NCBI RefSeq assembly: GCF_020623625.1
Contig: NC_060200.1
Span: 814,001 to 878,000, forward strand
DNA length: 64,000 nucleotides
Origin: Saccharomycodes ludwigii
Lineage: Eukaryota; Ascomycota; Saccharomycetes; Saccharomycodales; Saccharomycodaceae
Direction of reading: 5' to 3'
The position numbers and the translations under genes are program-made. Of this stretch, positions 1-11,993 are shown piece after piece. Each line of letters opens with the position of its first letter. The stretch's first letter is position 1. The notes under the pieces are model-generated. The model worked only from the letters and a program-made list of their open reading frames with translations, had not been told where the DNA came from and ran no database searches.

Positions 1-1415
1 TGTAGTTTCTTGAAATCGTACCATTGGGTTTTGCCGTCTTCAGAAACGGTGACAAATGCAGGTAAAGCAACGGAAGCCAAATTACAAACAGCTGTCTCTT
101 CCGGGTTCGAATACTCAACAATCTCACAACACAAGTTAGAAGATTTAATAACACCCAAATTCTTTTGATTAGATTTCTTATTGCAAGCATCTTTGTAGAC
201 AACAAATGGGGTCCCGGTTTCTGTTTGAGCTTCTAAAATAGCATACCACAACTTCTGAGCCTTAATAGTTTTTCTGCCACGGCCTTCGGCAACGTATTTT
301 TCATACAACGCTTCAAATTCATCGCCATAAACATCACTTAACCCTGGTGCTTCACTTGGAGAAAACAATGTCCAATCGCCATTGGCCTTAACACGTTTCA
401 TGAATAAGTCCGGAACCCACAAAGCAGGGAATAAATCTCTAGCACGAATTTCCTCCTTACCATGATTTTTTCTGATGTCAATGAAATCAAAGATATCACT
501 GTGCCATGGTTCCAAATACAAGGCAAAGGCACCCGGTCTCTTATTACCACCCTGATCAACGTAACGAGCAGTATTGTTGAAAACACGGGCCATAGGAATA
601 ATACCATTAGAAGTACCGTTGGTACCAGCAATGTAGGAGCCGGTGGAACGGATGTTATGGATGTGTAAACCAATACCACCTGCGGACTTAGAAATCAAGG
701 CACATTCTTTTAGAGTATCGTAAATACCTTCGATGGAGTCATCTTTCATGGCAACCAAGAAACAAGATGACATTTGTGGACGTGGTGTACCAGCATTGAA
801 TAAAGTTGGAGAAGCGTGAATAAAATACCTCTGTGACATTAAATTATAAGTTTCTAAAACTTTTGGGATATTGTCACCGTGAATACCAACCGAAACTCTC
901 ATTAGTAAATGTTGGGGACGTTCGACAACCTTGCCGTTTAATTTCAACAAATAGGAACGCTCTAAAGTTTTGAAGCCAAAATAGTTAAACGAAAAATCTC
1001 TATCGTACACAATGGCGGAATTTAGTTCATTCTCATGTTTCTGAACAATATTATAGACTTCTTCGCTAATCATTGGTGAAGGAATATCATTTTTAGGGTT
1101 TATATAGTGGTATAAATCAGACACAACTTTGGAAAATTGTTTAGTTGTTTGTTTGTGCAAATTGGAGATTGCAATCCTGGCAGCCAAAACAGCATAATCT
1201 GGGTGAATGGTGGTCATATAAGCACATGTTTCTGCAGCTAAGTTATCTAACTCAATTGTGGTGACACCTTCATAAACACCGGAGATGATACGTTGGGTGA
1301 TTTTAACTGGGTCAATATGCTTAGGATCTAGTCCATAACATAGACGAGCAATACGAGAAGTAATTTTATCAAATTGTACTGGCTCCTTACGGCCGTCTCT
1401 TTTGCAAACGTACAT
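1..1415 (-). CDS. RNR1: Ribonucleotide reductase large subunit (3' end outside window)
   Basis: Reduces ribonucleoside diphosphates to deoxy forms for DNA synthesis, in complex with the small subunit, in the cytosol. About 471 N-terminal residues are visible and the gene runs off the left edge. It starts [17 protein letters not shown], the ATP-cone that binds the allosteric effectors. The class I core follows, with [16 protein letters not shown] carrying the first redox-active Cys and [20 protein letters not shown] in the active-site barrel, then [10 protein letters not shown]. The start is the only ATG beginning the conserved N-terminus. S. cerevisiae has two ohnologues, RNR1 beside ARG5,6 and RNR3 beside FIS1; a single gene here next to FIS1 fits an unduplicated locus. 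Two MluI cell-cycle boxes lie about 450-520 bp upstream. Confidence 0.97.
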
Positions 1416-1868
1416 GGTATATAAATTTAGGTGTGTGTTTGATTGTTTTCAGATACCTTTAGTGATTTCTGATTTGATTCTTTTTAAGTCTCACAAATGA
1501 ACAAAAAGATTCTTGGAAGGTTCAATATGTTGCAGTATCGAAAAGTGAGTGATATATGAAATTCAGTTATTGTGGAAAAAAATTTTTCCTAGAAGAACCT
1601 TAAAAATCGAATTGATAAAAATTTTGTTTAATTTACTTGTCCTTTATATATATTCAATATTTGGATTAATAATAATAATTTTAAAGTGGAAAAAAAAAAA
1701 ATAGAAAAAAAAAAGAAAAAAAAATTTGTGCTAAAACATATGAGAAGCTACGCCTTTTTTTTAAAAAAAAAAAAAAATTAAATTAAATTAAAACTTCGAG
1801 AGAGTATATCAAGTATTGCATATGGTGTTTTCAGAATTTATACTTCTACAATGGTTTCTATGTAAAAC

Positions 1869-1874
1869 ACGCGT
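1869..1874. promoter_or_regulatory. MCB element (ACGCGT) upstream of RNR1
   Basis: Perfect ACGCGT about 454 bp upstream of the RNR1 ATG. MBF (Mbp1-Swi6) binds this box and drives G1/S transcription of DNA-synthesis genes in budding yeasts; RNR1 is a classic target. The hexamer is rare in such AT-rich DNA. Function is inferred from the motif and position. Confidence 0.65.
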
Positions 1875-1935
1875 AAATCCAATGTGTCTTTTTTTTTTTT
1901 CTTCTAAAAACTTTAAAAAAAAAAAAAAAAAAAAA

Positions 1936-1941
1936 ACGCGT
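1936..1941. promoter_or_regulatory. Second MCB element (ACGCGT) upstream of RNR1
   Basis: Second perfect ACGCGT, 67 bp from the first, flanked by poly(A) runs that probably keep nucleosomes away. The pair in the RNR1 promoter argues for MBF control. Confidence 0.65.
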
Positions 1942-2882
1942 AAATATTTTGCACGTAAACTTTTTTTAAAAAAAATCTACACATAAAAAAATTTACAAGA
2001 ATCAGGATTAATTTATATCTTTATATTTTGCTTCACAGAAACGTCCGCAAATGCTTTCCGGATAATAAGGACTAAGTTTCTATAAACCTAATAAAGTTGT
2101 TACCGCATTATTTAGTACAGGTGAGCTTTGTTCATCGTTCAAAATACCTCGTTAAGAACACACAATTATACCCCTCCCATTTAAAATAAAATAATAAATT
2201 AAAAAATTAAAATAAAAGAGATGCTTAATAATAACTATTTGCGTGATTTTACTTTGTATCGTGTTAGTAACCTTAAGGCTTGTCATCCGCTTTTTATCTT
2301 ACCAGGAGTGCAATGGAATTTCAAATTAAATTAAGATAATTGTTTAAATAACCAGTAAAAGAAGAAAAGAAAAAAAGAAAAAAAGAAAAAAAAAGTAATA
2401 AATATATAGACAAGTTTGAAAAAATCCTAATTTTACACCATTCTTTTCACTAAGATATAACAATTTTTTTTTGACTTTCTCGTGTTAAGTTTTATAACTT
2501 AGCATGCATCAATCGCATCTAACACATAAGTTACACAACTAGAAATGATTTTTTTAAAGATCTGCTTAATGCAATGTTAAGGTGAAGATGGAGCGGCTGT
2601 ACTAGTAATATAAAATCTTAGTTTATTGCTTAAGGCTTTGGCGTTATATTTTCTTTACAAACTCTTTCTCAGTCTTTTAGTACTAGTATCATAACAAAAG
2701 TAAGTTACTTATATTCATTTGTTTAGAGGTTAAAACTATAATGAATTCAAAAAAAGCAAAACATATAAAAGAATGAAGGAGAATATGTACATTATATTTC
2801 ATAGATAATAATATATACAACTGAAAAAGTACAGGATTTTAGTTTGTTTTTTTTTTTTTTTTTTTTTTTTTTCGTTTATATT

Positions 2883-3359
2883 TTATCTTTTTTTAGAACC
2901 TCTCATGTAGACATTTATCCCATATGCAGCAGCTCCAATAACAACAGAAACAAGTGCTAATCCTTTCAAACTTTGTGACGCAATTTTTGATTCAACCATT
3001 TTTTTTAAGGCAAATACCTGAGTATTATGGGATGATTCACGTTCTGCTAAGGCATCGATATATCTTTTTGCCATCGTATATTCACCCATTTTATAGCATC
3101 CAATGGTTAAGTAGTATAGACATTCACGTCTCCTTTTGGGTGCTTCCTTATAAACATCAGATAATAGTTTTACACCCAACCGCTGGTTATCAACGTCGTT
3201 TGATTTTATTAGCCCCCAAGCATAATTAAACCTTGATTGAATAGATGCTATATCGCCACCTTCAGAAAGTACTTGTTGACGCAATATTTCTAATTGGGCA
3301 GGGGGTAATTCTCCATACGCATCTTCTAATGTTGGTAAATAAGCCAGTCTTTCACTCAT
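2883..3359 (-). CDS. FIS1: Mitochondrial fission protein Fis1
   Basis: Tail-anchored adaptor on the outer membrane of mitochondria and peroxisomes that recruits Mdv1/Caf4 and the dynamin Dnm1 for fission. The 158 residues match the family length (155 in S. cerevisiae). The soluble part is a two-TPR bundle (SRFNYAWGLIKS, RRRECLYYLTIGCYKMGEY). A single membrane segment at about residues 131-150 (LALVSVVIGAAAYGINVYM) is followed by a basic tail (RGSKKR), the usual tail-anchor signal. It is transcribed divergently from EFM4, the same neighbour as on S. cerevisiae chromosome IX. Confidence 0.96.
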   Translation of the reverse strand: MSERLAYLPTLEDAYGELPPAQLEILRQQVLSEGGDIASIQSRFNYAWGLIKSNDVDNQRLGVKLLSDVYKEAPKRRRECLYYLTIGCYKMGEYTMAKRYIDALAERESSHNTQVFALKKMVESKIASQSLKGLALVSVVIGAAAYGINVYMRGSKKR

Positions 3360-3650
3360 GTAGTGTTTTAATTTATCTGTTTGTTTGTTTTGGTTATTAT
3401 GTTTATGTGCTCTTTAGTAAAGGGTGAAAAGTGAAAAGTGAAACGGTAAACGAAAAAATGAGTGATGTTTTTTTTTTTGTAAACATAAAGCGTATAAATG
3501 TATTAAAAAAGGCTGCGATTAAAAGGATAAAAAAAAAAAAAGACCTTTAAAGGGGGAAGGAGTCTCTCTCCATAACATGTGTACAATATTTCTCTTCATA
3601 ATACGAATGTTACAAAACCAAGTTCTTCGGACAAATTGAATATCTTTTTT

Positions 3651-3682
<32 letters not shown>

Positions 3683-3812
3683 CGCTACAATTTTTAGAAG
3701 TTACTATTAAAAAGTTTTTCGATGTAAAATTTTAGACATTTTAATAACAACATAACGCATTGAAATGAAATGTCTCATATATACATATAACAGCATATAA
3801 CTGTACTTAATA
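3360..3812. other. Divergent promoter region FIS1/EFM4
   Basis: 453 bp shared upstream region of two divergent genes. It has a pure T run ending at about 3680 and shorter A runs near 3530. No specific factor site is recognised. Confidence 0.55.
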
Positions 3813-4517
3813 ATGGAAGACACAACAAAGTTGAATACCTCTAAACTAGGTACTAAAAAATACTGGGAAGATTTTTATAGTTTGGAAAAAACAAATTTTG
3901 AATCAAATCCAGAAGATACCGGAGAATGCTGGTTTAGTGATAACGATGCAGAGGAAAAAATGATCGATTTTTTGATGCAAAATTTGGGAACACATTCAAT
4001 CACTGAAAAATCAACTATTATTGATTTGGGTACAGGCAATGGTCATTTACTTTTTAGCCTATACGAAGAAGGTTTTACCAAAGCTAAGCTGCATGGAGTT
4101 GATTATTCTCATGAAAGCATCAAATTTTCAAACAAAATTTTAAGTGAAAAATACCCGGAAGCTTTGGATAATATTTCTTTTTCTCAAGTTGATATATTCG
4201 ACTCTGAGTGGAAACCACCAAGATTTGATATTGTATTGGATAAAGGCACTTTAGATGCAATTGCTCTAAGTGGGCTGAAATTAGCCAGTGGTAAAACTGT
4301 TGTTGATGCTTATCCATCGGTAATTGACAAATTGTTGAAAGATAATGGTGTTTTTTTAATTACTTCATGTAATTTCACTCAGAAAGAATTGATTAAAATT
4401 GCAGAATCATGTGAAAACTTAAAACTGTGGAAAACTGTTAGTTATCCAATATTTGAATTTGGAGGTGTTAAAGGTACAACCATTTGTACGGTTGCCTTTA
4501 TCAAACAAAAAATATAA
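3813..4517 (+). CDS. EFM4: eEF1A lysine methyltransferase, Efm4 type
   Basis: SAM-dependent methyltransferase of the Efm4/See1 family, which in S. cerevisiae methylates Lys316 of translation elongation factor eEF1A. The 234 residues hold a seven-beta-strand fold. Motif I is IIDLGTGNGHLLF (about residues 69-81), the acidic SAM-ribose position follows in HGVDYSHESI, and FDIVLDKGTLDAIALS covers the catalytic region after strand 4. Near the N-terminus GTKKYWEDFYSLEKTNFE is the family's typical opening. The start is the first ATG in the open frame. It sits divergent from FIS1 and convergent with YRB2, as on S. cerevisiae chromosome IX. Confidence 0.93.
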   Translation: MEDTTKLNTSKLGTKKYWEDFYSLEKTNFESNPEDTGECWFSDNDAEEKMIDFLMQNLGTHSITEKSTIIDLGTGNGHLLFSLYEEGFTKAKLHGVDYSHESIKFSNKILSEKYPEALDNISFSQVDIFDSEWKPPRFDIVLDKGTLDAIALSGLKLASGKTVVDAYPSVIDKLLKDNGVFLITSCNFTQKELIKIAESCENLKLWKTVSYPIFEFGGVKGTTICTVAFIKQKI

Positions 4518-4746
4518 ACGTGCCCAAGCTGTTTTCTTTATTGTTTTGCCGCGATAAAAACGAAGTTTTTTTTTAAAAAAAAAAAAAATTTACAGAAAAG
4601 ACGTTGCTATTCGGTTTTATAAAAATTATATATATAATGGTTGTAAATACAGGTCAATCAAAGAAAAAGAGGGGGAGGGAGAAGCGATCGATAATAGAAT
4701 AATGTTAATTTTAAATATTATTAAAGTTAATTTTTTACCGTTCTTT

Positions 4747-6171
4747 TCATTTCCTTTCTTGACTTTCCTTTTCTTTTTCCTTTTCTTCTTTTTCTTCTTC
4801 TTCTTCTTCTTGTTTTCTCTCTCCCTCCCCTTCTTCTTCCAGCTTTTTTGTATTTTTTTCGTGTCTATCTTCTTCCGTTTTAATTGCAGTTTCTATACAG
4901 ACAAACAATTCATCGCTAATCTCCTTTTTACCCGATTTTATAGCAAATTGAACTGGAATTTTGTTCTCATTAACTGCAATAATTCGAATAAATTTTTCTC
5001 CCTGTATGGACCCAGGGAACCCCTTGTTAACTTTAAAACCAGGCACTAAAGGTAAATTCAAAATAACTTTCAATAACCCACGACTCCTCATAATAATACG
5101 AAATTTTCCAGTAATTCTATCTTTGTTGACATGAATTACACCAACACCCCTTTCCTTCCAACCTGTCTTAACATCAATTAATTCGTATAATTTAGCATTG
5201 GATTGTAAAATACATTCTTCACTCTCTTCGCCTGACTTTATATTTTGTGCCACGAAGTTACCAGATTCTTTATCACCTTCTTTAACAGCGGTAGCACTAG
5301 TGGAACATTCGCAAGTTGATTTACCATTGCATTCTTTACCGGTATCAGATTTGGACATGGTAATATCGGTAAAAGGTTTCGCTGGCACAGCTGTAAACTT
5401 AGTTTTGTCGTTTTTATTATTATCATTGTTATTAGCAGTGGTGGTACTACTATTATCAGTGGCAACAGTACTAGTATTATTAAATAAAGCAAATCCAGAA
5501 CTAAATTGCGATCCGGAACCAAATGTAAATTTGTTGTCACTTTTTAATGATGAAACGCTATTGCTGTCTTTAAAGTCTATTGAGGATACTGGTTTCAATG
5601 CACCAAACCCAGAACCAAAAGAAGTCGATGAAGCAAAAGGTTTTATAATACCATCAGTAGCAACCTTTTTATCTTCTTTTCTCTCGGTATTTGGGGATCC
5701 ATCTGTACTCGAACTAATGGCATTACCATTAACAATAGTGGTATCTGATTTTGGCATAATACCAAAGCCTTTAGAAAAAGCAGAAGTTTGACCAAACGTG
5801 AATTTAGGTTTTTCTACGTGAGTTCCGTTTTTTTCTTCAGCATGTTTTGCATCATTACTTTTAATATCGTTTTTTACTTTCTTGCTTTGTGGCATATCCT
5901 TTGAAGATGATGCAGCAGCGCTTAAACTATCTTTTTCAGTACCATTGAAAGTTTTTGTCATTAATTCTTTTCCCTTGTCATCTTCGTTTTCTTTTTCCTC
6001 TTCTTCAGTTCTAGTTCTTTTTTTTGATGGAAGAACAACGATGTCCTTATCTTTTTCTCCTTTTTTGTTGTTGTTTAATGAGTTTTCTTTGGCTGCTGCT
6101 GCTGCTGCTACTGCTGCCGCTGCTACAGAAGTGGATGATGATAAATTTCTTTGTTGGTTTTTCCCGGACAT
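4747..6171 (-). CDS. YRB2: Ran-binding nuclear export cofactor Yrb2
   Basis: Nuclear Ran-GTP-binding cofactor of the exportin Crm1. Of 474 residues, the N-terminus is low complexity with a poly-Ala run and a basic KKRTRTEEEE stretch that could be a nuclear localisation signal. Three FG-type segments follow (FTFGQTSAFSKGFG, TSFGSGFGAL, FTFGSGSQFSSGFALF). The Ran-binding domain spans about residues 322-435 (LYELIDVKTGWKERGVGVIHV, FRIIMRSRGLLKVILN). The final 45 residues are a Glu/Lys-rich tail. It is longer than the S. cerevisiae protein (327 aa as I recall) mostly through low-complexity DNA. Convergent with EFM4 and followed by ARC15, as on chromosome IX. Confidence 0.93.
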   Translation of the reverse strand: MSGKNQQRNLSSSTSVAAAAVAAAAAAKENSLNNNKKGEKDKDIVVLPSKKRTRTEEEEKENEDDKGKELMTKTFNGTEKDSLSAAASSSKDMPQSKKVKNDIKSNDAKHAEEKNGTHVEKPKFTFGQTSAFSKGFGIMPKSDTTIVNGNAISSSTDGSPNTERKEDKKVATDGIIKPFASSTSFGSGFGALKPVSSIDFKDSNSVSSLKSDNKFTFGSGSQFSSGFALFNNTSTVATDNSSTTTANNNDNNKNDKTKFTAVPAKPFTDITMSKSDTGKECNGKSTCECSTSATAVKEGDKESGNFVAQNIKSGEESEECILQSNAKLYELIDVKTGWKERGVGVIHVNKDRITGKFRIIMRSRGLLKVILNLPLVPGFKVNKGFPGSIQGEKFIRIIAVNENKIPVQFAIKSGKKEISDELFVCIETAIKTEEDRHEKNTKKLEEEGEGERKQEEEEEEKEEKEKEKESQERK

Positions 6172-6402
6172 TTTCCTTAAAAACTCTTATTGTGTTACAG
6201 CCTAGTATATTTGCAGTTCCTGTTAATTTGCGAGTTCAAAAAAAAAAAAATTCCTTTTTTTCTTTCTTCTTTGTAAGTTTTAGTGAATCGAAGTTAAATC
6301 GTTGTAGCGTTTGGTCAGTTAGATTATTAGAAATAACAAACATTATTTTTTTATTTTATATATGTATATAGGCGAGAATTTAAAAGGGAAAAAAAAATTA
6401 TG

Positions 6403-6439
<37 letters not shown>

Positions 6440-6541
6440 GAGTATATCATACTATTGGAAACCAAAAATTATAAATTCGCATATATATATATATATATAT
6501 ATATAAGCATACTTTAATGGTTGTTTGATTTTCTCTAACAG
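6172..6541. other. Intergenic region YRB2-ARC15
   Basis: 370 bp holding the YRB2 promoter and ARC15 3' flank. It contains a long A run around 6403-6436 and an (AT)n microsatellite around 6480-6505. Nothing else is recognised. Confidence 0.55.
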
Positions 6542-7015
6542 TTAAACACTCTTCCTATCTGTTAAAAATCTAATAATGGATCCTGTCCCATTCTTTTCAA
6601 TAACTTTATCTAACCAACTCAACAAAACAGCTCCTTGCTTGGCACCCTCCGGTTTACTCATCCCCTTGTATAAATATTTAGTTAAAACATCTGCTTCATC
6701 ATTACTCAATTGCTTTACAATATTAGCAATATCAGTTGGTCTTGCTTGACATAGTACATCTAATACAGCCAATAAGTATTGTTGTTTGGTGGCTTCGGAG
6801 TCTGTTAGATAAACCGGACTACCTGTGATAAGTCTAACAGCAGATAAGGTATCACCGCTCGAGCCAAAAGAACGTAATTGACTTATTTGTTGCTGAACTT
6901 GTTGGATAGTATAAGTTGGCAATGTGGTTAATAAAGGTTGTTGTAAATCAGCAGCCGTCAACCTAGCATTTTCTGGGTCCAATGCATCTATATCAATTCT
7001 TCTCCAGTCCTCCAT
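6542..7015 (-). CDS. ARC15: Arp2/3 complex subunit 5 (p16/ARPC5)
   Basis: Small subunit of the Arp2/3 complex, which nucleates branched actin at cortical patches during endocytosis. The 157 residues match the family (154 in S. cerevisiae). The N-terminus MEDWRRIDIDALDPENARLT is the family's signature, and the C-terminal helical part (LTKYLYKGMSKPEGAKQGAVLLSWLDKV) is strongly conserved in ARPC5. The start follows from the conserved N-terminus. It follows YRB2 on the same strand as in S. cerevisiae. Confidence 0.96.
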   Translation of the reverse strand: MEDWRRIDIDALDPENARLTAADLQQPLLTTLPTYTIQQVQQQISQLRSFGSSGDTLSAVRLITGSPVYLTDSEATKQQYLLAVLDVLCQARPTDIANIVKQLSNDEADVLTKYLYKGMSKPEGAKQGAVLLSWLDKVIEKNGTGSIIRFLTDRKSV

Positions 7016-7560
7016 TTTATATTTAATGTTTTCTTTGTTGTTTTTAAATAACTTTGTTGATAATATGGCTTCGCTGTTGAAACCTAATTAATTTTGCAAA
7101 GAAAGAGTGTATGTGTGTACCTAACTATTAAAAGTTCATCCGGTTTTAAGGATAATTTTTCTGCCCATAAAATTTTTTACTGGAGATATTTTCAATTTTC
7201 ATTCCTTCTAAAAAAAAAAAATAAAAAAAAAAAAAAAAAAAAAAAAAAAGGGGCAGAAAGAGAAAAACGAGCGAAAAAAATGATAGATATATTTTCAATA
7301 CCGGGTAACGTTCATTTTGAACGAAATCTTTAAAAAGAAATTTATTATTTTTTAAAAAAAAAGCTTAATCTAAGTATATAAAAATTTGTTGTCATAAACA
7401 AACTCGAATACAATGGTTAAAATATAAACGGGTTGAGATTCATGAACTTTAGTGTACAAAATTTAAACAGTAATAGACAGTTTTCAATTAATATCCACTA
7501 CATATATATATATATATGTATATGTATGAAAGTTAAAAAAAAAGTTATTTTCCTAAATAT
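7016..7560. other. Intergenic region ARC15-ARG5,6
   Basis: 545 bp with the ARC15 promoter and ARG5,6 3' flank. A long A run interrupted by one T lies around 7211-7249, with an AT microsatellite near 7503-7520. No gene is seen. Confidence 0.5.
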
Positions 7561-10962
<3,402 letters not shown>

Positions 10963-11993
10963 TCACTTACCATCATTTTTGGCTTTATTGAAATTTTTAT
11001 TTGAACGGACTTTCTTATTATTATTGATATTTTGGGTGGTGCTGCTGTTACTATGTTTATGCTTAAGAATATTACCAAGACCTTTGTTACCGTTTGAATT
11101 CAACTCTTTCTCGCTTATTTGTTTTGTTTCCAAATACCTCTTCATATATCCCCTCCCACCAAGGCCGCCACCTAATCTTCTAGGTCTGAAGTACTTTACT
11201 GTTCTCCCTCGTTCGACATCTACAATAATCGGTCTTCCATCTATTATCATTCCGGCATGTGTTCCAATACTTTTATAGCAATTTTTCGCAGATTGTTGTT
11301 CTCCAAAGGTAATAAAACCATATCCTTTACTTTTGTTCGTTTTTATATCTCGAACAATTCGTAATTTTTCAATGGCTCCAAACTTTATAAAAATTTTATG
11401 CAACTCCACTTCATCGACTGAGTACGGTAACCTCCCTACAAATATTGTCTTATACGGGTCTGTTCCTTTAGTAAATTGATCCTTATGAGGATTCCAATTC
11501 TCTAATTCTTTCTGTATTTGTCTTAAATGGGTACTAAAAGCTGGAGCATGATGCTCGTTCTTATCTATGTTGGCGTTTAACGTGGAAGTTACCGTGTTTT
11601 TGACGGGAAAATCTTGTAAATATTGTTTTATCAGGGAAGTGTTATCACCCTTTTTATAATTGTTGGTACTAGTATTTATAATGGCTGAAACACCATCTAT
11701 ATATGGGTCAGTTTTTCTTTCATTAAGTGGATAATCGATGGGTTCAACGTAGCGTAAATTTGGGCTTGGTTTAATAATTGTCTCTAAACGTTTTGTATAT
11801 TTTGATGATGACTGTTTAATAAAAAGTAATATGTTAACACATAATATTTGTTAGTAAGCTGGTATCTTGATAATCTAATCAGTTAAATCCATAATGGATC
11901 CAACATACCTTGTAAAACCTTGAAGTTTGTTGTCTACAAGAAAAAAGAAAAATAAATTTCTGTTTTATGTTTATATTCAATAGCACATACCAT
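10963..11993 (-). CDS. SNP1: U1 snRNP 70K protein, spliced
   Basis: U1-70K homologue that binds stem-loop I of U1 snRNA in 5' splice-site recognition. Best model: exon 1 is only ATG (11993-11991), exon 2 is 11811-10963, giving 283 residues (300 in S. cerevisiae). The join reads M-SSSKYTKRLETIIKPSPNL, aligning with the yeast start MNYNLSKY. The U1-70K N-terminal region follows (YIDGVSAII, LENWNPHKD), then an RRM (TIFVGRLPYS as RNP2; SKGYGFITF as RNP1) and the family signature VERGRTVKYFRPRRLGGGLGGRGY. The tail is Asn/Lys-rich. No in-frame ATG exists in exon 2 before the RRM, so the spliced ATG is needed. It falls between ARG5,6 and NOT4. Confidence 0.9.
11812..11990 (-). other. SNP1 intron with internal decoy splice sites
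   Basis: 179-nt intron directly after the start codon: GTATGT at 11990, branch site TACTAAC near 11851, and acceptor TTAAACAG ending at 11812. Only this join puts ATG in frame with the conserved protein. Inside it lie a second acceptor-like CTTGTAG ending at 11934 and a second donor GTATGT at 11908, framing 25 nt. Confidence 0.85.

What the first reader, a model, noticed from the sequence alone, without database searches (positions are those of the whole stretch)
11812..11990. SNP1 (U1-70K) intron directly after the ATG with a nested 25-nt frame-breaking exon
The intron donor follows the start codon itself, and only the join ATG|TCA keeps the conserved frame. Inside are a second acceptor-like CTTGTAG (ends 11934) and a second perfect donor GTATGT (11908) that bracket 25 nt. 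Including those 25 nt shifts the frame and reaches a stop within about 23 codons. A U1 snRNP protein whose own start codon depends on splicing, with a competing donor, is an obvious candidate for autoregulation. U1-70K is known to use unproductive splicing in plants and animals; S. cerevisiae SNP1 has no intron, to my knowledge.
Basis: partly seen in the sequence, partly recalled or inferred. Interest (0 to 1): 0.75.

Follow-up and report, generated by a model that had tools for sequence, protein, structure and literature searches.

The report
Yeast SNP1 intron with decoy donor
In a budding yeast, the gene for a core splicing protein (U1-70K) has an intron right after its start codon that carries a second, stronger splice donor whose use would ruin the message; this could let the splicing machinery limit its own production, but no RNA evidence was available.

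Summary
The sequence observation is correct. The minus-strand gene is SNP1/U1-70K, and the genome is almost certainly Saccharomycodes ludwigii NBRC 1722. ATG (11993-11991) is followed at once by GTATGT. Only the join 11991|11811 gives the 283-residue protein. A second GTATGT at 11908, a pyrimidine-rich TTGTAG ending at 11934 and the frame-breaking 25 nt are all present.

The reading needs changing. A spliced-in 25-nt exon is unlikely: its upstream 57-nt 'intron' has no branch site (best 5 of 7, 21 nt from the donor), whereas 11 comparison introns span 52-150 nt and shorter spacings are not enriched genome-wide. The credible alternative is donor competition. Donor 2 shares the single TACTAAC and acceptor, sits 58 nt from branch A, and pairs with this species' probable U1 by 9 bases against 6-7 for donor 1. 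Using it leaves a 19-codon dead-end frame. A hairpin overlaps donor 2, though masking is not clearly beyond chance.

The architecture recalls vertebrate SNRNP70 feedback and yeast RPL22B. However, a nested GTATGT is not beyond chance across this genome's introns, an intron after ATG is not unusual here, and neither conservation nor RNA use could be tested. Plausible, unproven; moderate interest.

The parts
11991..11993 (-). Start codon of SNP1; the coding part of exon 1 is the ATG alone
   Evidence: the ATG|TCA join gives MSSSKY..., close to the starts of two Hanseniaspora relatives, MSSKEDER and MSLKEDER
11985..11990 (-). Donor 1 (productive), AUG|GUAUGU; pairs with the probable U1 at -1, +1, +2, +3, +5, +6 and at an isolated -3; branch A is intron nucleotide 140
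11812..11990 (-). Productive intron, 179 nt
   Evidence: of the five transcript forms translated only this join gives the 283-aa U1-70K protein (PF12220 + RRM)
11934..11954 (-). Nested acceptor-like TATTTTTCTTTTTTCTTGTAG (16 of 18 pyrimidines before TAG); its TAG is also the stop codon of the 19-codon frame from the ATG
   Evidence: no branch site upstream (best TATAAAC, 5 of 7, 21 nt from donor 1)
11909..11933 (-). 25 nt between nested acceptor and nested donor; inclusion gives 22 codons then a stop
11903..11908 (-). Donor 2 (nested, unproductive), CAAG|GUAUGU; 9 bases pair with the probable U1 (-4 to +6 except +4); branch A is nucleotide 58 of the 97-nt intron to 11812
11882..11904 (-). Hairpin GUUGGAUCCA-UUA-UGGAUUUAAC, 10 pairs, -8.9 kcal/mol, beginning in the last two bases of donor 2
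   Evidence: 16 of 40,000 sampled 23-nt pieces of the window fold as well
11850..11856 (-). Single branch site TACTAAC shared by both donors
11812..11814 (-). Productive acceptor CAG; 39 nt remain after branch A
10963..11811 (-). Exon 2 of SNP1 (282 codons plus TGA)

Best explanation
SNP1 (U1-70K) of this yeast has one intron with one branch site and one acceptor but two competing donors. Donor 1 (11990), directly after ATG, makes the productive mRNA. Donor 2 (11908) pairs better with U1 and lies closer to the branch site, but overlaps a hairpin; its use keeps the 5' part of the intron and yields a dead-end message with a 19-codon frame, presumably removed by nonsense-mediated decay. Shown: the sites, frames, predicted pairing and spacings. 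Inferred: that donor 2 is used at a measurable level. More speculative: that its use rises with U1 snRNP abundance (plentiful U1 captures donor 2 before the hairpin closes, and with both donors bound the one nearer the branch site wins), which would give negative feedback on U1-70K. The TTGTAG at 11934 most likely does not act as an acceptor.
For: Both donors lie at spacings seen in this genome: branch A at 140 and 58, against 52-150 in 11 comparison introns. Donor 2 pairs with the probable U1 5' end (L014) by 9 bases, RNAduplex -10.0 kcal/mol, against 6 (7 with an isolated -3) and -5.0 for donor 1. Each modelled form that keeps donor 1 unspliced or includes the 25 nt loses the protein. Precedent: turning the intronic alternative donor of S. 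cerevisiae RPL22B into GUAUGU sent 70% of spliced RNA to it when Upf1 was absent (PMC3983031, section 13 read).
Against: No RNA data. A nested GTATGT is expected by chance in several of about 166 introns. The RPL22B parallel is imperfect: its normal donor is suboptimal, while donor 1 here is a full GTATGT. The hairpin is rare as a 23-mer (16 of 40,000) but masking of donor 2 is not exceptional: its 6-nt opening energy is reached by 110 of 300 flank shuffles and 13 of 37 GTATGT sites of the window, and in that same 241-nt stretch donor 1 is no easier to open (5.1 against 4.2 kcal/mol; in four other stretches it is easier); 9-nt opening is reached by 25 of 400 shuffles. The intron with short flanks folds no better than shuffles (z 0.02). 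No relative's DNA was available. The sign of any feedback is not fixed by the sequence.
Confidence: 0.5

Rival explanations
1. Chance: the nested donor and acceptor-like motif are accidental strings in an AT-rich intron, largely unused because donor 1 is transcribed first and a hairpin overlaps donor 2.
For: Expected number of nested GTATGT per such intron about 0.045, so several among about 166 introns; hairpin; 0 extra GTATGT in 11 comparison introns against 0.5 expected gives no sign of selection either way.
Against: AAGGTATGT is found only here in 128 kb of strand; a consensus intronic donor is strongly used in S. cerevisiae RPL22B when introduced, so a perfect but inert one is not the default expectation.
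Confidence: 0.38
2. Poison cassette exon: the 25 nt are spliced in between a 57-nt intron and a 97-nt intron, giving a stop after 22 codons.
For: Good pyrimidine tract and TAG at 11934 (16 of 18 Y, better than the 11 of 18 of the productive acceptor); the frame break is real.
Against: The 57-nt intron has no branch site: best 7-mer TATAAAC, 5 of 7, 21 nt from donor 1. GTATGT-to-TACTAAC gaps of 5-29 are not enriched genome-wide (20 matches, 10 of them one repeated C6 string, against 14 in the control), while gaps of 30-60 are (34 against 9; 22 if 11 copies of a subtelomeric repeat and one near-duplicate are left out). The 20 short-gap matches were not fetched or tested for joins.
Confidence: 0.07
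3. The productive message starts elsewhere, for example at an upstream or non-AUG start reading into donor 2.
For: Donor 2 to 11812 is by pairing and spacing the better intron.
Against: The 11993 ATG is out of frame with that join (85 nt); the ATG|TCA product begins much like two Hanseniaspora relatives. Starts further upstream were not searched systematically.
Confidence: 0.03

Closest known systems
S. cerevisiae RPL22B non-productive alternative 5' splice site (PMC3983031, passages and section 13 read; PMC4838235, abstract and outline seen)
   Same: Two donors, the extra one intronic, giving an unproductive RNA; a stem-loop in the intron
   Different: RPL22B's extra donor is suboptimal GUUUGU, its normal donor is suboptimal too, and its protein binds the stem-loop; here both donors are GUAUGU, the extra one has more U1 pairing, and the host gene encodes a U1 subunit. 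No RNA evidence here
Vertebrate SNRNP70 exon 7a, U1C/U1 snRNP-dependent unproductive splicing (PMC3798272: abstract, section 8, part 1 of 2 of section 9, passages)
   Same: Same gene family; an acceptor-like site followed by extra U1-pairing donor sequence; use of the alternative route ends the frame
   Different: There in intron 7, three regulatory donors, activation of an alternative 3' splice site, shown by mutation and seen in zebrafish and mouse; here directly after ATG, one extra donor, the acceptor-like site lacks a branch site, nothing shown in RNA
Introns directly after ATG in this yeast
   Same: Same position; another gene of this genome (L041, prenyltransferase-alpha repeat) has ATG|GTATGT as well
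   Different: None of the 11 comparison introns carries a second GTATGT
U11 snRNP as activator of alternative splicing (seen only as a title in a reference list; content recalled)
   Same: Recalled: genes of minor-spliceosome snRNP proteins with extra snRNP-binding donors
   Different: Minor spliceosome; recalled as widely conserved; no conservation could be tested here

Membership tests
U1-70K (SNP1) | U1snRNP70_N domain followed by an RRM | tested here: met
   PF12220 43.7 bits (cut-off 23) and RRM_1 59.6 bits (cut-off 20.7); best solved-structure match yeast U1-70K 5zwn_Q, E 7.6e-58
Non-productive alternative 5' splice site (RPL22B type) | Second donor upstream of the same branch site and acceptor at workable spacing | tested here: met
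   GTATGT 11908, branch A at intron nucleotide 58
Non-productive alternative 5' splice site (RPL22B type) | Its use gives a premature stop | tested here: met
   19-codon frame
Non-productive alternative 5' splice site (RPL22B type) | The junction is seen in RNA, more so without NMD | not testable with these tools
   No transcript data held; 0 papers hold Saccharomycodes + intron + RNA-seq + splicing
Poison cassette exon | Acceptor-like and donor motifs bracketing a stretch that breaks the frame | tested here: met
   Motifs and frame
Poison cassette exon | Working upstream intron with branch site | tested here: not met
   No TACTAAC-like site (best 5 of 7) at a spacing seen in this genome
SNRNP70 exon 7a-type U1 feedback | Alternative acceptor activated by a downstream U1-binding donor | tested here: inconclusive
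   Arrangement present (acceptor-like site 25 nt before a strong donor) but no branch site; activation cannot be tested
SNRNP70 exon 7a-type U1 feedback | Conserved in related species | not testable with these tools
   The genome tool holds no relatives of this genome; only proteins of relatives were found; the viral and prokaryote contig collections were not scanned
Nested intron / stwintron | Inner intron interrupts a splice site of the outer one (definition recalled) | tested here: not met
   Outer donor, branch site and acceptor are uninterrupted

The most novel reading that the evidence does not exclude
A self-sensing U1 homeostat in a budding yeast: U1 snRNP reads its own abundance through a strong, hairpin-guarded decoy donor in the intron of its U1-70K gene, an arrangement reached independently of the vertebrate SNRNP70 exon 7a switch.
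Probability: 0.18. Interest if true: 0.72.

Novelty: new member of a known kind. Interest (0 to 1): 0.38.

Why it matters
If donor 2 is used and responds to U1 levels, this would show that unproductive splicing of a U1 subunit gene, known from vertebrates, also arose in an intron-poor yeast, in a system small enough to dissect: one intron, two donors, one branch site. It would make the question of how U1 abundance selects between nearby donors directly testable in a yeast.

Tried and rejected
Nested-exon reading rejected for lack of a branch site. U1-70K binding directly to a stem-loop-I mimic: the intron holds AUCAAG upstream of the branch site, but this species' probable U1 loop is GAUCAAGUAG (L014), so 6 of 10 positions match, and the 6-mer is expected by chance at about 0.06 per intron (hand estimate); not pursued. 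The fold of the intron with short flanks gave no signal. Nested donors elsewhere: L074 and L070 show no supported join and lie in low-complexity, apparently intergenic sequence; L062 lies inside an open coding frame that looks like NAM8 (name from recall). No sign of a third exon: no TACTAAC with at most one mismatch in 11000-10400, despite GGTAAGT at the stop codon. The U1C-like gene (PF06220) has no intron between its ATG and zinc finger; the rest of that gene and the other U1 protein genes were not examined for introns, apart from the open NAM8-like frame. In the rows listed by the paper searches (20 of 47, 20 of 106, 15 of 54 and 15 of 623 papers) I saw no report of an intron in, or autoregulation of, a budding-yeast SNP1; one search found 0 papers.

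Full report
Identity. The window lies in a 12,500,424-base genome of 8 contigs. Contig C3 is 1,848,403 bases long, exactly the N50 given for the Saccharomycodes ludwigii NBRC 1722 assembly (12.5 Mb, 7 chromosomal scaffolds, one gap; PMC8567612, passages seen), so the organism is that yeast with near certainty. The minus-strand gene spliced ATG|TCA encodes 283 residues with PF12220 and an RRM; the best solved relative is yeast U1-70K; the ten best protein relatives after the window's own are 43-49% identical over 73-90% of the length or so (120 of 1,276 hits listed). The database copy of this protein (P0002, 282 aa) starts at SSSKY, that is, without the ATG exon.

The observation. Three outcomes matter (five transcript forms translated): 283 codons if 11990-11812 is removed; 22 codons if the 25 nt are included; 19 codons if donor 2 is used alone or nothing is spliced, ending at the TAG of the acceptor-like site (a fifth form, first intron removed and second kept, gives 17 codons). 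The product of the ATG|TCA join starts MSSSKY; two Hanseniaspora relatives start MSSKEDER and MSLKEDER at nearly the same alignment column, while most of the other aligned relatives have a few more residues before this point. This supports the start and join moderately.

Is the 25-nt exon real? An exon needs a working intron on both sides. The 97-nt downstream intron has TACTAAC with branch A at nucleotide 58. The 57-nt upstream one has no branch site: the best 7-mer matches 5 of 7 and puts A at nucleotide 21. To see what this genome allows, GTATGT...TACTAAC pairs were counted. Gaps 30-60 gave 34 matches against 9 in the reversed-pattern control; 11 of the 34 are one subtelomeric repeat and one is a near-duplicate, leaving 22. 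Gaps 5-29 gave 20 against 14, and 10 of those 20 are one repeated C6 string. Gaps 61-121 gave 52 against 32. Gaps 122-182 gave 29 against 37, so that range is dominated by chance and repeats; 10 of the 29 are the C6 repeat.

Comparison introns. Stretches around the hits were fetched, leaving out 12 of 34, 6 of 52 and 10 of 29 hits (repeats, near-duplicates and one further hit, C3:784436); hits inside the window were read from it. A script sought frame-keeping joins and kept 24, SNP1 among them; several are doubtful, one (L062) lies in an open coding frame and also has two GTATGT. Eleven of the other 23 were picked by eye as credible proteins; ten of these were scanned against Pfam and 9 of 10 matched a family. 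Their branch-A distances run from 52 to 150 nt; the searches behind them required at least 42, so the lower end rests. On this evidence the upstream mini-intron falls outside what is seen, and inclusion of the 25 nt is unlikely.

Donor competition. A probable U1 snRNA was found by its 5' end: among 21 ATACTTACCT sites one, in L014, is followed by a stem with the loop GATCAAGTAG. Rfam at gathering scores found nothing in 20 of the 21 candidates and gives L014 only a sub-threshold U1 score (16.3 bits against 69.5, E 0.11), so the identification is good by eye but not formal. Donor 2, CAAG|GUAUGU, pairs with it at nine of the ten positions from -4 to +6 (not +4); donor 1, AAUG|GUAUGU, at six positions from -1 to +6 plus an isolated -3. 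RNAduplex gives -10.0 against -5.0 kcal/mol; among the 24 donors one (L084, cofilin) is below -10. Donor 2 is also nearer the branch site. By these rules donor 2 should compete well. The experiment closest to this is RPL22B, where making the intronic alternative donor GUAUGU sent 70% of spliced RNA to it when Upf1 was absent (PMC3983031, section 13 read); but there the normal donor is itself suboptimal, which is not so here.

The hairpin. Directly at donor 2 lies a 10-pair hairpin (11904-11882, -8.9 kcal/mol); 16 of 40,000 sampled 23-nt pieces of the window fold as well. It takes in the last two bases of donor 2. Whether it masks donor 2 more than expected is doubtful: opening 6 nt costs 4.2 kcal/mol in a 241-nt stretch, reached by 110 of 300 flank shuffles and by 13 of 37 GTATGT sites of the window; opening 9 nt costs 7.6 in a 121-nt stretch, reached by 25 of 400 shuffles and by 3 of 37 sites, donor 2 itself included. 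Donor 1's own 6-nt opening cost is 5.1 in the 241-nt stretch and 1.3 to 2.9 in four others. The intron with short flanks does not fold better than shuffles (z 0.02). Subtracting opening cost from pairing brings the two donors near balance, which is suggestive but rests on rough energies.

How far beyond chance? Not far. Non-coding GTATGT density predicts about 0.045 extra donors in the donor-branch stretch of one such intron, so several among about 166 intron genes (3.3% of 5,031; hand estimate). The 11 comparison introns have none in 1,413 nt, 0.5 expected. Rarer are the AAG before it (one AAGGTATGT in 128 kb of strand) and the host gene, a U1 subunit, though gene and pattern were noticed together.

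Most likely mechanism. Donor 1 makes the protein; donor 2 diverts some transcripts into a dead-end RNA. The sites and frames are shown; use of donor 2 is inferred; response to U1 abundance is speculation. One consistent scheme for negative feedback: the first-transcribed donor 1 is used when U1 is scarce; when U1 is plentiful donor 2 is captured too and, being nearer the branch site, wins. The opposite sign cannot be excluded, since the stronger site might win when U1 is scarce.

Compared with the known. The vertebrate SNRNP70 gene has an alternative acceptor with a cluster of regulatory U1-binding donors downstream, giving an NMD-sensitive RNA and linking U1C and U1-70K levels (PMC3798272: abstract, section 8, part 1 of 2 of section 9, and passages). 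The arrangement here (acceptor-like site, 25 nt, strong donor) looks like a miniature of it, but it sits at a different place in the gene and lacks the branch site that would make the acceptor work. It would work more like RPL22B. Two yeast or fungal intron surveys (PMC4202332, PMC8476143), a splice-site survey (PMC10581693) and the non-productive-splicing study (PMC3983031) do not contain the term SNP1 in their main text (passages only).

Noticed in passing
L014 101-192 (own genome C3:1748629 on): Probable U1 snRNA gene: ATACTTACCTT 5' end and a stem with loop GATCAAGTAG (S. cerevisiae GAUCAAGAAG, recalled); Rfam U1 score 16.3 bits is below the family cut-off of 69.5.
   Followed up: partly
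window 10971-10965, - strand: GGTAAGT, fully complementary to the U1 5' end, overlaps the SNP1 stop codon (GGT AAG TGA); no branch-site-like 7-mer follows up to 10400. Possibly chance.
   Followed up: partly
own genome, 11 places near contig ends, e.g. C1:13004, C2:22006, C5:14883, C7:14688, C8:13932: A near-identical GTATGT...TACTAAC stretch recurs near contig ends: possibly a subtelomeric gene family with a conserved intron.
   Followed up: no
L062 (C6:1071892-1071968): Two GTATGT and a TACTAAC inside an open coding frame resembling NAM8, another U1 snRNP protein (name from recall); most likely coding coincidence.
   Followed up: partly
own genome: The U1 5'-end string ATACTTACCT is found 21 times against 83 for the reversed control; may reflect avoidance of strong U1 sites or only dinucleotide bias.
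   Followed up: no
C4:897987-898106 (L074): Three GTATGT in a 17-nt tandem repeat before a T-tract and TACTAAC; no supported exon join.
   Followed up: partly
window 11991-11993 against P0002: The database copy of this SNP1 protein lacks the start methionine, as if the 3-nt ATG exon had been missed.
   Followed up: partly
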